From NCBI RefSeq assembly GCF_900566075.1, contig NZ_UPHU01000001.1:4588325-4652324 (forward strand): DNA of 64,000 nt. Reading direction: 5' to 3'. The stretch is from Mycobacterium pseudokansasii (GTDB taxonomy: Bacteria; Actinomycetota; Actinomycetes; Mycobacteriales; Mycobacteriaceae). The stretch's first letter is position 1. Each line of letters begins with the position of its first letter. The notes under the pieces were generated by a model, which was given only the letters and a program-made list of their open reading frames with translations, was not told the origin of the DNA and did not search any database. This document shows, in pieces, positions 55,553-61,417 of this stretch. The translations under genes were made by a program, and so were the position numbers.

Positions 55553-57769
55553 GTGTCCCATCTGATCGGGCGCCATAAGATCTCAGCGGTGCCCATTCGA
55601 TGGAACGTCCCGCAACAGGCGGCCGCGCTGGAGCGGTTGGACGCCGCCCTGGGCGACGCATCCGCTGGCGGTGGGGCAGTCGTACTCGGACCCGACGGCG
55701 TGGGCAAATCCACGCTGGCCCGGTTGGCCGCCGAACAATTCTGCCGCCGGCACCCGACCACGCTGATCCGCTGGGTCATCGGCACCCCGACCGAGCGCGT
55801 GGTTCCGTTCGGCGCCTTCGGCCATCTGGTCAGCATCGCCGAAATCGGCAAGCCGGCCGCCCTACTGCGGGCCGCCCGGGCATCGCTATGCGCTGACGAT
55901 ACGCAAGGCAAGCTGCTGCTCATCGTCGACGACGCGCACGACCTGGACATCTTGTCGGCCACCCTGGTGTACCAGTTAGCGCTGACCGGCACGGCCCGGA
56001 TGATCGTCACCGCGCGCACCCCGGATACCCCGGATACCCCAGCCGCGCCCGAGGCCATCACAGCGCTGTGGACCGACCGTTTGCTGGAGCGGATCGACAT
56101 CGAGCCGCCGGGCGGACCAACCGCGCCGGCCGAGGTCGACGAATTCATCGCCGAGCTGCCCGCCCCGGCGCGGTCGGTGCTGGATTACCTCGCCATCGCA
56201 GAGCCCTTGTCGCTCGCCGATCTCACGGTGCTCGCCGGTGACGGCGCCGTGCAGCAGGCCGAGGAGTTGGGCGCCGCGGAAACCCGGGTACGCGGCGGAC
56301 GCGCCGACGATCCGGTGGTCTATACGGCTCACCCGTTGTTCGCCGAACGCACGCGTGCGGCGCTGGGCGATGACGGCGCGCGACGACGACGAACCGAGAT
56401 AGTCATGCTGTTGTCGCGGCATCCGACCGAACACCTCAGCGACCGGCTGCGGCTGGCGGCGTTGGCGCTGGGCGGCCTGGACAGCGAAGCCGAGCAACCG
56501 GTGGACGAGGTCGTCGCCGCCGCGCAGCAGGCGCTGCGCCTGGGCGACGTCCGGCTGGCCGAGCGGTTGGCGCGAGCGGCGCTGGATCGCTCGGCCGGAC
56601 TGGACGCGCGACTGGTGCTGGCGCAGGCGTTGAGCTGGCAGGGACGTGGCCGGGAAGCCGCGGGGGTGCTGGCGGCCGTGGATCCTGCCGGTCTGTCCGA
56701 GGCCGAGCTGAGGGCGTGGGCGGTGCCGCGGGCCGCCAACCAGTTCTGGATGCTCGGCGAACCGGAGCGGGCCACGGCGTTCCTGCAGACCACTCGCGGC
56801 CGGATCATCGAGCCCTCCGCGCAGGCCGAGCTGGACGCACTGACGGCAACGTTCGCCATGAACGCCGGAAACCTGCCGCGGGCCGTCACGCTGGCCGACC
56901 AGGTGTTGTCCCAGCCGTCCCCCGGTGACACGGCCGTGGCCTGGGCGGCCAGCGCCGCCGCGCTGTCCTCGGCCCGGATGGGTCGCTTCCGCGACGTCGA
57001 GCCACTGGTCCAACGGGCGTCGGCCGCCGAGCATCCCGGGCTGCTGCGATTCACCGTCGGCCTGGCTCAGATCACCTCGCTACTCATGGCGGGTGAGATC
57101 GCCCAGGCTCAGACGCTGGCCCAGCAGTTCACCGACTTTGCCGAGTTGCAGCAGCCCGGTCGGGCCATCGGTGAGGTGTTGCTGGGACACGTGCTGCTCA
57201 CCAAGGGCGAATTCGGTTCTGCGGCATCGCTATTGGAGCCTGCCGCTGCCGAACTGGAACGCACCGGCTATTCCTGGGGTCCGCTGTCGCTGATGTTGCT
57301 GGCCACTGCCATCGCGCAGCAGGGCCGCATCGCCGAGTCCGCGAAAGCGTTGCGGCGCGCCGAAACCCGACACGGAACCAAGTCAGCGCTGTTCGCACCC
57401 GAACTCATGCTGGCCCGCGCGTGGACCAAAGCCGCCGCCCGGGACAAGGCCGGCGCCATCGCCGATGCCCGCGAAGCGGCCCGGACCGCCGAACGAGGCG
57501 GGCAGTCGACGGTGGCGCTTCGGGCCTGGCATGATGCCGTTCGCCTCGGCGATATCCGGGCTGTGGTCCCGGTGACTCGGCTGGCCACCGAAATCGACTG
57601 CCCAGTAGGCGATCTCGTGGCCAAACAGGCCCGCGCGCTCGCCGATGGCGACGCTGCCGCGCTGACCGTGGTGGCCGAAGAGTTGGCCGCGATCGGGATG
57701 GCCGCCGCGGCTTCCGACGCAGCAGCAGCAGCAGCGGTAGCGGTGGCGAACCAGTCGGGCTCGGTGTGA
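55553..57769 (+). CDS. AAA ATPase/MalT-like regulator lacking the LuxR HTH domain (truncated)
   Basis: This 738-residue protein has a Walker A (VLGPDGVGKSTLARLA, near residue 48), a Walker B-like LLIVDDAHDLDIL and a long TPR-like alpha-helical region. This is the pattern of mycobacterial LAL regulators (ATPase, TPR, C-terminal LuxR HTH). Those normally continue past the AAASDAAAAAA block for about 130 residues to an HTH. Here the frame ends after VAVANQSGSV, and no HTH follows. The end lies where an eccE3-like gene from the opposite strand reads in. It is probably a cut regulator, though M. tuberculosis Rv1204c at the same position is also a short form. GTG at 55589 (MPIRWNVPQQ) is an alternative start. 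Confidence 0.8.
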   Translation: MSHLIGRHKISAVPIRWNVPQQAAALERLDAALGDASAGGGAVVLGPDGVGKSTLARLAAEQFCRRHPTTLIRWVIGTPTERVVPFGAFGHLVSIAEIGKPAALLRAARASLCADDTQGKLLLIVDDAHDLDILSATLVYQLALTGTARMIVTARTPDTPDTPAAPEAITALWTDRLLERIDIEPPGGPTAPAEVDEFIAELPAPARSVLDYLAIAEPLSLADLTVLAGDGAVQQAEELGAAETRVRGGRADDPVVYTAHPLFAERTRAALGDDGARRRRTEIVMLLSRHPTEHLSDRLRLAALALGGLDSEAEQPVDEVVAAAQQALRLGDVRLAERLARAALDRSAGLDARLVLAQALSWQGRGREAAGVLAAVDPAGLSEAELRAWAVPRAANQFWMLGEPERATAFLQTTRGRIIEPSAQAELDALTATFAMNAGNLPRAVTLADQVLSQPSPGDTAVAWAASAAALSSARMGRFRDVEPLVQRASAAEHPGLLRFTVGLAQITSLLMAGEIAQAQTLAQQFTDFAELQQPGRAIGEVLLGHVLLTKGEFGSAASLLEPAAAELERTGYSWGPLSLMLLATAIAQQGRIAESAKALRRAETRHGTKSALFAPELMLARAWTKAAARDKAGAIADAREAARTAERGGQSTVALRAWHDAVRLGDIRAVVPVTRLATEIDCPVGDLVAKQARALADGDAAALTVVAEELAAIGMAAAASDAAAAAAVAVANQSGSV

Positions 57770-58917
57770 CTCTCGGACCAGGCACCGTCGCGACGGCTCT
57801 CCCGAATCATCGCGGTTTGGCGCCGGCCGCGGCGGCCAATGTCTGGCAGCACCGCGAAGCGGTGGTCCGCTCTTCCCGCCTCGGAGAGGCGCGCGGCGCG
57901 TGCGCCGCGCGCAAGGACGGGCCAAAGCAACCGGCCAACCAGTTCGTAGGGCACCGCGGTGTGCCCCTCCAGTCGTTGCGCCGAAAACGGATCCAGTGCC
58001 ATCAGCGCCTGCCGATGGCTACCGTGCCGGGGCGTCATGCCGGCCAAGGGCGCTCGTCGCCGCGGCATCGCGGCGGCGCGAAAGACACAGGCTGCTCCAA
58101 GACTGAAGCCTGTTGCGGCCCTGGCAATCTCCAAGACCATCCAGGATTCGCCGACCGCGTGCGACCGGATCTGCGGAAAGACGTCCGGCAACTCATCAGT
58201 TATGTCGATCCGGTACGCCGCAAGGTAATCCACGCTATCGTTGCGCACAACCGCACGCCAAGTCTCGCGCCCTGTTCCAGCGCCCAACTGAGGAAGGTCG
58301 CCGGGCCGCGCGACCCTGGTTGTCCAACCGAGCTCTTGGAGGTGATCTGCAAGCCGACGCGCCACGACATGCGTTGTCTGGTCCAAGGGTATGTGCGGAG
58401 CGTGGGCCTGCAGTGCCGCCAGGTTTGCGATCGCTGAGATAGTCACGGCAATCCAAGTCTGACCGATGCCGGTTATCTTCTCGTTATTGATGATTCGGAT
58501 GTTGTCGGTGCGAATACCGTAGCGATCCAGGTAACTGGCTATCAGCGGCAGCGGAAGTGCGTCCAGCCGGCCGGCCCTCGGCTCGAGGCGTATCAAGGCG
58601 GTTGCCGTTTCGTCAACGCTCGCGCTGAACAACGACCCGCGACGTCGATGGATTCCGGGTCGACGGCCACGGGTTATCGCCAGTCGGCGTCGGGCGTTGG
58701 TCGTCAGGTGTACTCCGCGCCAATAACCCAACAACACGACCACGCTGAGGACGGCGACGCCTAACACCCACCGGTCGTGTGTTGAACGCCACGGATGGGC
58801 CAGCACCGCCGCGATCCCGACCGAGACCGCCAACGTGACGCGCCAGGTGTCCGGCCAGACGATGATGGGTCGCCTTCCGGATGGGGACATTCTCACAATG
58901 CTGGCTCCCTCCGCCAT
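57268..58917 (-). CDS. EccE3-like type VII secretion protein with a lost C-terminus (read-through)
   Basis: The N-terminal part resembles EccE3 of ESX-3: two spans (WRVTLAVSVGIAAVLAHPWR, then VLGVAVLSVVVLLGYWRGV), LPLPLIASYLDRYGIRTDNI, RRLADHLQELGW, RETWRAVVRNDSVDYLAAYR, ESWMVLEIARA, and LDPFSAQRLEGHT. Homology can be followed to LLWPV (about 57917). The frame then continues with no stop until 57268, through antisense of the regulator gene, so the C-terminal 200 residues are not family sequence. The start is either 58917 or MSPSGRRP at 58890. EccE3 belongs to the ESX-3 membrane complex. No eccB, eccC, eccD or mycP partner is next to it. It may be non-functional. Confidence 0.75.
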   Translation of the reverse strand: MAEGASIVRMSPSGRRPIIVWPDTWRVTLAVSVGIAAVLAHPWRSTHDRWVLGVAVLSVVVLLGYWRGVHLTTNARRRLAITRGRRPGIHRRRGSLFSASVDETATALIRLEPRAGRLDALPLPLIASYLDRYGIRTDNIRIINNEKITGIGQTWIAVTISAIANLAALQAHAPHIPLDQTTHVVARRLADHLQELGWTTRVARPGDLPQLGAGTGRETWRAVVRNDSVDYLAAYRIDITDELPDVFPQIRSHAVGESWMVLEIARAATGFSLGAACVFRAAAMPRRRAPLAGMTPRHGSHRQALMALDPFSAQRLEGHTAVPYELVGRLLWPVLARGARAARLSEAGRADHRFAVLPDIGRRGRRQTAMIRESRRDGAWSESHTEPDWFATATAAAAAASEAAAAIPIAANSSATTVSAAASPSASARACLATRSPTGQSISVASRVTGTTARISPRRTASCQARSATVDCPPRSAVRAASRASAMAPALSRAAALVHARASMSSGANSADLVPCRVSARRNAFADSAMRPCCAMAVASNISDSGPQE

Positions 58918-61152: not shown

Positions 61153-61417
61153 TACCAATCGCGTAACTAACACCAGACTCAGCAACACTGGTCCCCGAAC
61201 GGCCAAGCTCTTCGACTCCCCCGGCAGCGACCGCACCATGCTCGCCGGCCACCGCGCTGAACCCGGCCGCGGTCTCCAGTGACACCGGGTCCGCCGCCGG
61301 TGGTACCACCGCCGTAATCGCCGGTATTGCAGCAGCATGTGCAGCGGCCAGGCGAGCCGTCAGTGCGTCCACCGCTGCACTTGCCGCCGCTAAACCCTCA
61401 GGAACCACTCGTAACAT
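61130..61417 (-). pseudogene. PE5-like gene truncated by a deletion junction
   Basis: From ATG 61417 the first 83 or so residues match the PE5 type (MLRVVPEGLAAASAAVDALT; AAIPAITAVVPPAADPVSLE; EELGRSGTSVAESGVSY). After SYA the frame turns into GKHHPDRP and stops at 61130. The DNA at this point is the middle of a PPE gene in another frame. A GAGGAG lies nine bases upstream of the ATG. The PE fold may still be nearly complete, but its normal C-terminus and PPE partner are lost. It heads the ESX-3-like cassette. Confidence 0.85.

What the first reader, a model, noticed from the sequence alone, without database searches (positions are those of the whole stretch)
57268..61417. Decayed ESX-3-derived cassette between a regulator and dapE
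On the minus strand the order is PE5-like, PPE4-like, esxS-like, esxR-like, a 0.4 kb gap, eccE3-like. This is ESX-3 order (PE5-PPE4-esxG-esxH-espG3-eccD3-mycP3-eccE3) with the middle missing. H37Rv has a partial ESX-3 duplication (Rv3017c-Rv3022c) with esx/PE/PPE only, not eccE. An additional copy that keeps eccE, located at the dap locus, is something I do not recall being described. It suggests a segment duplication of ESX-3 followed by internal deletions, while retaining the esxS/esxR-like pair.
Basis: partly seen in the sequence, partly recalled or inferred. Interest (0 to 1): 0.85.

Follow-up and report, generated by a model that had tools for sequence, protein, structure and literature searches.

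The report
Inserted, half-broken ESX-3 satellite cassette
A 4.2-kb piece derived from an old side-branch of the mycobacterial ESX-3 secretion locus has landed between dapE and a regulator gene; relatives carry fuller versions of the same unusual five-gene set elsewhere, and this copy has lost its PE/PPE pair while keeping two small secreted-protein genes and one membrane-machine gene.

Summary
In detail: on the minus strand lie PE, a PPE fragment, an EsxG/S-like and an EsxH/R-like gene, a 0.4-kb gap and an EccE3-like gene, between dapE and a regulator. The block is a 4,151-bp insert (57762-61912) sitting in the stop codons that dapE and the regulator share in sister species G074; the two genes are adjacent in 6 of 7 other genomes examined. 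It is ESX-3-derived, but not a duplicate of this genome's own ESX-3: its EccE falls in a separate clade with EccEs of M. lacus, M. decipiens, M. gastri, M. simulans, M. kansasii and unnamed G064 (99/98; placement with own EccE3 rejected, p 0.00015). M. lacus and M. simulans carry the same PE-PPE-esx-esx-eccE set, without espG3-eccD3-mycP3, at a wax-ester-synthase locus (G064 lacks its esx pair; M. gastri is split by contig ends). The window copy is partly decayed: PE and PPE are fused out of frame by a deletion, the shared promoter block is missing, eccE runs on past its usual end; Esx pair and EccE core are intact. Most likely an acquired, degenerating ESX-3 accessory module with a spare EccE.

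The parts
57762..61912 (.). 4,151-bp insert between the dapE stop codon and the end of the regulator
   Evidence: Junctions against the uninterrupted site of G074 (convergent genes overlapping by CTAG), with M. gastri and G015 also read; AGC occurs at both edges (possible 3-bp duplication or microhomology). GC 62.3% against 66.8% for the window
61913..62977 (-). dapE, intact, keeps its TAG at the insertion point; co-directional upstream neighbour of the cassette
   Evidence: NCBIfam TIGR01900 518 bits
61425..61912 (-). 488-bp leader of the cassette; no match in 6 relatives, no match to the promoter block shared by other cassettes
61130..61417 (-). PE5-like gene; its last part, with the YxxxD/E-type motif (motif recalled), is lost at the deletion joint (about 61148)
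   Evidence: Pfam PE 69.7 bits; 73% to own PE5; sequence
60016..61148 (-). PPE (PPW subfamily) fragment lacking about the first 130 residues, out of frame with PE
   Evidence: Pfam PPE positions 127-164 of 165 and PPE-PPW; relative P0122 has the full PPE domain (202 bits), P0123 and P0124 by alignment
59658..59951 (-). EsxG/EsxS-like WXG100 gene, intact, keeps YVAAD near its end
   Evidence: relatives P0241 97% and P0242 93%
59334..59627 (-). EsxH/EsxR-like WXG100 gene, intact
58918..59333 (-). 416-bp gap; espG3, eccD3 and mycP3 give no match better than E 0.02, no match in 6 relatives, no Pfam domain in the ORF scanned
   Evidence: M. lacus stub as control E 2e-9
57862..58890 (-). EccE3-like core: two N-terminal helices and cytoplasmic domain
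57268..57861 (-). run-on C-terminal frame of eccE; leaves the insert at 57762 and continues antisense to the regulator
   Evidence: (M. kansasii homologue P0001 ends at 365 aa with another tail)
55553..57769 (+). AAA/LuxR-type regulator; its end is changed by two codons plus a stop supplied by the insert
   Evidence: (AbsR2-like and AAA matches, below cut-offs)

Best explanation
This is a horizontally acquired, partly degenerated satellite cassette of ESX-3. Shown: a 4,151-bp block sits in the stop codons that dapE and the regulator share in a sister species; it carries PE-PPE-esx-esx-eccE of an EccE lineage separate from the ESX-3 EccE3s sampled; related cassettes with the same gene set lie at a wax-ester-synthase/AraC locus in other slow-growing mycobacteria. 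Inferred: the transfer itself; and that the ancestral cassette worked as an accessory module, its Esx pair (and PE/PPE pair) being exported by the parent ESX-3, and its EccE replacing or mixing with EccE3 by docking on EccD3, the only ESX-3 subunit that EccE3 is reported to touch. In the window the PE/PPE half is dead, no cassette promoter was found, and the Esx pair and EccE could be made only by another promoter or by read-through from dapE, which lies upstream in the same direction.
For: Empty site. EccE identity and structure model (two helices plus alpha/beta domain, mean pLDDT 78.5, pTM 0.65). Separate clade: seven sequences, 95/96; eight with P0013, 99/98. Same set elsewhere: M. lacus complete (L039), M. 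simulans complete (L043), G064 without the esx pair (L041), M. gastri esxH-eccE-araC (L147); remnants of this locus's eccE in the own genome (L086) and in G074 (L173) between the same neighbours. espG3 stub in M. lacus. Purifying selection on the Esx pair: dN 0.05-0.16, dS 0.75 or more or saturated. EccD3-contacting helices (M. smegmatis residues 133-163; PMC6986878, passages; placed by the alignment) are kept better than the rest of EccE: 22/31 against 120/267 to the own EccE3, p 0.007. Composition: GC3 of esxS, esxR and eccE 0.61-0.73 against 0.82-0.86 for own esxG, esxH, eccE3, dapE and the regulator; M. lacus cassette eccE 0.78.
Against: No donor was found: in the protein search nothing over 54% identity to the window EccE except M. 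kansasii P0001 (92%), whose genomic place is unknown. Conservation of the helices is also seen between ordinary EccE3s, so it does not prove binding to EccD3; the window keeps 15 of 18 otherwise invariant residues there. The cassette looks dispensable: at the wax-ester-synthase locus the own genome and G074 have each lost most of eccE, G074 most of the whole set. No mobility gene or terminal inverted repeat was seen. A relative-rate comparison with P0001 showed no faster change in the window EccE (14 against 12, p 0.85), so EccE itself is not shown to be decaying.
Confidence: 0.63

Rival explanations
1. Recent segmental duplication of this genome's own ESX-3 to the dapE locus, followed by deletion of espG3-eccD3-mycP3 on the spot.
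For: Gene order and families match ESX-3.
Against: 44-49% EccE identity to the own EccE3, while own EccE3 is 92-93% to sister species; clade test p 0.00015; esx pair separated from the own ESX-3 esx pair (95/93 split); same gap in other species; leader unlike that of own eccA3.
Confidence: 0.05
2. Reading of this copy, compatible with the best explanation: a still working accessory module. EsxS/EsxR-like pair and EccE are made from an outside promoter or dapE read-through and modify ESX-3 in this species, while PE/PPE are dispensable.
For: Esx pair and EccE core have no frameshift or stop; low dN against high dS; no acceleration of EccE; co-directional with dapE.
Against: No sigma-70-like promoter in 57400-62000 (0 found, 0.6 expected); one terminator-like match on the minus strand, 60569-60552, lies between dapE and the esx pair, though the 4 matches found are at chance level (3.3 expected); Zur- and IdeR-like sites are found before own eccA3 but not here; PE/PPE destroyed; EccE tail replaced by run-on sequence.
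Confidence: 0.2
3. Reading of this copy, compatible with the best explanation: a wholly inert remnant, the retained frames being simply too young to have broken.
For: PE/PPE deletion, missing promoter block, eccE run-on; repeated loss of eccE at the other locus in this complex.
Against: The cassette persists in further contigs: P0241 (97% EsxG, contig of 29,953) and P0121 (identical PPE fragment, 12 contigs, longest 29,958), none of them the window's 6.3-Mb contig.
Confidence: 0.35
4. Assembly artefact caused by repeated esx genes.
For: Four esx pairs in this genome, and such repeats break draft assemblies (M. gastri).
Against: One 6.3-Mb contig; the PPE fragment, 100% identical, is on 12 contigs none longer than 29,958 bases; leader and gap are single-copy.
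Confidence: 0.02

Closest known systems
ESX-3-derived PE/PPE/esx copies of M. tuberculosis (Rv3017c-Rv3022c; PE/PPE sublineage II, PMC1660551, passages)
   Same: PE, PPE and EsxG/EsxH-type genes copied away from ESX-3 without the membrane core
ESX-5a, b, c four-gene regions (PMC4852179, abstract and section 6 read)
   Same: pe/ppe plus esx pair outside the parent locus, thought to serve subsets of substrates through the parent machine
   Different: derived from ESX-5; no membrane subunit, whereas here eccE belongs to the set
ESX-6 of M. marinum, a partial ESX-1 duplication (start of the abstract of PMC13354803 in a search listing)
   Same: partial duplicate of an ESX locus
   Different: ESX-1-derived
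EccE3 of the ESX-3 core complex (PDB 6lar, 6sgz, 6sgw)
   Same: whole EccE domain order, two N-terminal helices
   Different: 44-49% identical to the own EccE3, without eccB3, eccC3, eccD3 beside it, and with a run-on tail
Second, complete ESX-3-like loci in other mycobacteria (L163, L164, L165, L167)
   Same: a second EccE3-type gene in one genome
   Different: they have eccA-eccD and mycP; the window has none of these

Membership tests
ESX-3 type VII secretion locus | eccA, eccB, eccC, eccD, mycP and espG beside esx/PE/PPE/eccE | tested here: not met
   tblastn (E 1e-4) with the 11 own ESX-3 proteins finds only PE5, PPE4, EsxG, EsxH and EccE3 relatives between dapE and the regulator
EccE of ESX-3 type | TIGR03923 over cut-off and closest to EccE3 of ESX-3 | tested here: met
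   163 bits against 108; all 3 PDB hits EccE3; the only other own-genome full-length match is the ESX-3 EccE3
WXG100 EsxG/EsxH heterodimer pair | two adjacent WXG100 proteins of about 97 aa | tested here: met
   Pfam WXG100 67.3 and 35.2 bits (cut-off 27.3); the EsxG-like one is under the TIGR03930 cut-off (30.9 against 44.85); dimer formation not tested
Functional PE/PPE pair | complete PE and complete N-terminal PPE domain | tested here: not met
   PPE domain positions 127-164 of 165 only
ESX satellite module of the ESX-5a kind | esx pair plus pe/ppe, no secretion apparatus gene | tested here: not met
   eccE is part of the set here and in M. lacus and M. simulans
Accessory module acting through the parent ESX | effect on export by the parent system | not testable with these tools
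   needs secretome or binding data
Transposable element | terminal inverted repeats or a recombinase gene | tested here: inconclusive
   no terminal inverted repeat seen at the junctions (among the 25 longest inverted repeats none joins the two ends); four further ORFs of the insert without Pfam match; not every ORF was scanned

The most novel reading that the evidence does not exclude
Slow-growing mycobacteria carry a family of ESX-3 satellite cassettes that bring their own EccE, a swappable subunit of the otherwise essential ESX-3 translocon: the cassette EccE would dock on EccD3 in place of EccE3 and tune the machine for the cassette's own Esx and PE/PPE pair. The window shows such a cassette moving between species and then being stripped, and M. 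kansasii may keep the EccE without this PPE and EsxG type.
Probability: 0.23. Interest if true: 0.72.

Novelty: new variant of a known kind. Interest (0 to 1): 0.45.

Why it matters
The ESX satellites described in the papers seen carry substrates only. A satellite lineage that also carries a membrane subunit, complete in M. lacus and M. simulans, reduced in G064 and in the window, and known as protein or remnant in several more, suggests that the ESX-3 translocon may be modular, which can be tested. It also places the loss of espG3-eccD3-mycP3 before the insertion and shows an exact insertion that spares both neighbours.

Tried and rejected
Zur and IdeR boxes before the window PE: none (best 8/15, p 0.985; 10/19, p 0.94), while the same scan finds both before own eccA3 (13/15, 0 of 200 shuffles; 14/19, p 0.005). 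Of the other leaders scanned, a Zur-like match at p 0.005 or less was seen before the M. lacus cassette PE (12/15) and the third G064 satellite (13/15). The query motifs were recalled and later compared with published ones (PMC2660348, passages).

Remnants of espG3, eccD3 or mycP3 in the window gap: best E 0.087, 1.6 and 0.020, taken as chance; the M. lacus stub gives E 2e-9 in the same search. The first such search printed a cut list without these queries; in it an eccB3 fragment at E 0.007 was the best hit shown in the gap and was not taken as real.

Faster evolution of the window EccE than of M. kansasii P0001: a first impression from branch lengths (0.069-0.078 against 0.014-0.018) did not survive the relative-rate count, 14 against 12.

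Plasmid origin: one match, at 28%, in 72,556 plasmid records. A named-genome scan with EccE alone gave none; with the alignment A1 it gave 8 loci. The EccE stretch of the 117-kb contig C2 had no near match in the plasmid collection; near records may be left out there.

Census: in 396 genus genomes (338 with any match) five EccEs, the window's included, stand above the run of scores: 684, 682, 631, 617 and 476 bits, then 444 and lower. Four of these five built the profile A1, so only the fifth (M. gastri) was found independently. With the window EccE alone over 198 genomes the lead of the cassette EccEs was small: 335, 322 and 303 bits, then an ordinary EccE3 at 302. Of 23 genomes with two or more matches, 11 were looked at; one EccE locus was fetched from each of seven of them, and 7 of 7 lie beside mycP (L166 and L169 are cut by contig ends, L166 before any eccD; L168 looks like an ordinary ESX-3; the other matches of these seven were not fetched). 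G074, of the 12 others, was settled; 11 were not looked at.

Limits: the seven named cassette EccEs without P0013 were one clade (95/96), with P0013 falling inside, that set of seven is not rejected (p 0.395). The sites of P0001, P0003 and P0013 are unknown. The largest contigs of P0001 differ from those of the window-type PPE and EsxG, so M. kansasii may keep only part of the cassette; unresolved. Searches scored only the 8,000 candidates sharing most words. Fold search was never run, so the fold rests on the model and on sequence.

Literature: searches (listings), passages of PMC10470612, PMC7916490, PMC11316565, PMC11237670, PMC1660551, PMC2660348, PMC11361433, PMC4791881 and PMC6986878, and abstract plus section 6 of PMC4852179. 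None that I saw describes an EccE-bearing ESX-3 satellite. Figures and supplements were not seen.

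Full report
What is there. Between dapE (62977-61913, minus) and a regulator (55553-57769, plus) lie, on the minus strand, a PE gene, a PPE fragment, an EsxG/S-like gene, an EsxH/R-like gene, a 416-bp gap and an EccE3-like gene. EccE is covered by the whole TIGR03923 profile (163 bits) and its only PDB relatives up to E 1 are three EccE3 sequences of ESX-3. The genome holds six Pfam EccE matches; by full-length search only the ESX-3 EccE3 is a relative of this one, at 49% (44-46% by BLAST).

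Where it sits. In G074, a sister species (EccE3 92% identical to the own one), dapE and the regulator are convergent and overlap by CTAG, each ending on the same four bases; G015 has the same, and in M. gastri a 9-bp repeat sets the two stops apart. In the window 4,151 bp (57762-61912) stand in that spot; dapE keeps its stop, the regulator gains two codons and a stop from the insert. Of seven other genomes looked at (G074, M. gastri, G015, G006, G007, G010, G064) six have the two genes adjacent, three of them read base by base; G064 has a 0.7-kb PIN/Phd-YefM toxin-antitoxin pair at the same junction. The insert is 62.3% GC against 66.8% for the window; esxS, esxR and eccE have GC3 0.61-0.73 against 0.82-0.86 for own esxG, esxH, eccE3, dapE and the regulator (M. 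lacus cassette eccE 0.78). The leader and the gap have no match in six relatives.

Which lineage. In a tree of 28 EccEs the seven cassette EccEs are one side of a branch (95/96), and placing the window and M. kansasii sequences with the EccE3s of their own complex is rejected (p-AU 0.000145). With rapid-grower outgroups and 33 rows, eight sequences (P0013 of M. simulans added) form a clade (99/98) whose sister is the M. xenopi-type ESX-3 group (99/98), which suggests that the lineage arose inside slow-grower ESX-3. The esx pair is likewise separated from the own ESX-3 pair (95/93), but its exact place is unresolved.

Relatives. M. lacus (L039) has PE, complete PPE, esxG, esxH, a ~24-codon espG3 stub and eccE, followed by an AraC regulator, a FadD-type enzyme, a wax ester synthase/DGAT, a NUDIX protein and DUF2330. 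M. simulans (L043) has the five genes and G064 (L041) has them without the esx pair, both next to relatives of the same wax ester synthase, NUDIX and DUF2330 genes. M. gastri has esxH-eccE-AraC-FadD on one contig and tgs-PE-PPE-esxG at the end of another; that these join is inference, supported by the own genome, where tgs, PE, PPE, esxG, esxH, an eccE remnant and AraC follow each other, and by G074, where between tgs and AraC only the first residues of PE and the last ~125 codons of eccE (82-86% to M. gastri) remain. The remnant in the own genome matches residues 2-104 (E 4e-16) and 330-340 (E 0.02) of the M. gastri EccE. So at this locus the complex has kept, trimmed or nearly lost the cassette. 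Species names come from record titles or contig lengths; G handles bear none. That the window belongs to the M. kansasii complex is inference from EccE3 (92-93% to G074 and M. gastri) and P0001. The census over 396 genomes is given, with its caveat, under tried and rejected.

State of this copy. A deletion joins PE to the late PPE domain out of frame; the relative P0122 has the whole PPE domain, as have P0123 and P0124 by alignment. Upstream of PE other cassettes share a block with TTGACA and a CTACG...CGTAG palindrome, part of it shared with own eccA3; the window leader shows no match to any of the 13 other leaders compared (plus strand, E 0.01) and the region has no sigma-70-like site. The eccE frame runs to 549 codons; M. 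kansasii P0001 ends at 365 with another tail. The Esx pair is intact, with dN 0.05-0.16 against dS 0.75 or more or saturated. EccE keeps 56 of 64 columns invariant in 23 slow-grower EccE3s, as does P0001; the six other cassette-clade EccEs keep 57-64; ordinary EccE3s in leave-one-out keep 96-100%, two rapid growers 81%.

How it may work. In the M. smegmatis ESX-3 structure EccE3 is reported to touch only EccD3, through helix 1 in the membrane and two helices at residues 133-163 (PMC6986878, passages). In the window EccE that stretch is 71% identical to the own EccE3, the rest 45% (p 0.007); ordinary EccE3s show the same trend (three slow growers 87-90% against 58-61%, M. komossense 68% against 47%). 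The model shows the two N-terminal helices and the cytoplasmic domain, with low confidence at the ends and at residues 88-99. This is compatible with docking on EccD3 but does not show it. ESX-5a gives the precedent of a satellite working through its parent machine (PMC4852179, section 6). The step from substrates to a spare subunit is inference.

Verdict. A real, partly decayed, acquired ESX-3 satellite, one of a lineage with eccE that I did not find described in the papers searched. Known kind, new variant.

Noticed in passing
L091 4508-5150 (G064 C1, dapE-regulator junction): A PIN-domain/Phd-YefM toxin-antitoxin pair sits at the same dapE-regulator junction that holds the cassette in the window: the junction may be a recurrent insertion site.
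   Followed up: partly
L086 9471-9775 (own genome C1, about 6.066 Mb) and L173 1474-1867 (G074 C1, about 3.226 Mb): Two different remnants of the tgs-locus eccE: 5' part in the own genome, 3' part in G074, where PE-PPE-esx are almost gone too.
   Followed up: yes
L160 5388-9790 (M. lacus C1, about 3.166 Mb): A further M. lacus satellite, PE-(split PPE)-esxG-esxH-espG3, with esxH 99% identical to the tgs-locus copy: satellites with different 3' ends coexist.
   Followed up: partly
L163, L164, L165, L167 (G022, G069, G073, G143): ESX-3-like loci, one of two EccE places in each genome, eccA-B-C-D-mycP-eccE, with esxG-esxH and PE/PPE upstream of eccA rather than between eccC and eccD.
   Followed up: partly
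upstream of PE in L039, L041, L043, L086, L087, L152, L160: A conserved promoter-like block with a CTACG-n-CGTAG palindrome (not equally clear in all), partly shared with the eccA3 leader; regulator unknown.
   Followed up: partly
60775-60888: The PPE fragment has two copies of a 22-residue unit around WMWxQEALLV (DNA copies 83% alike, 66 bp apart), also in P0122 and P0123.
   Followed up: no
P0013 (M. simulans, contig of 6,131,989): An EccE labelled EccE3 that falls in the cassette clade and is only 54% and 57% identical to the two EccEs of G023 (M. simulans); its place was not seen.
   Followed up: partly
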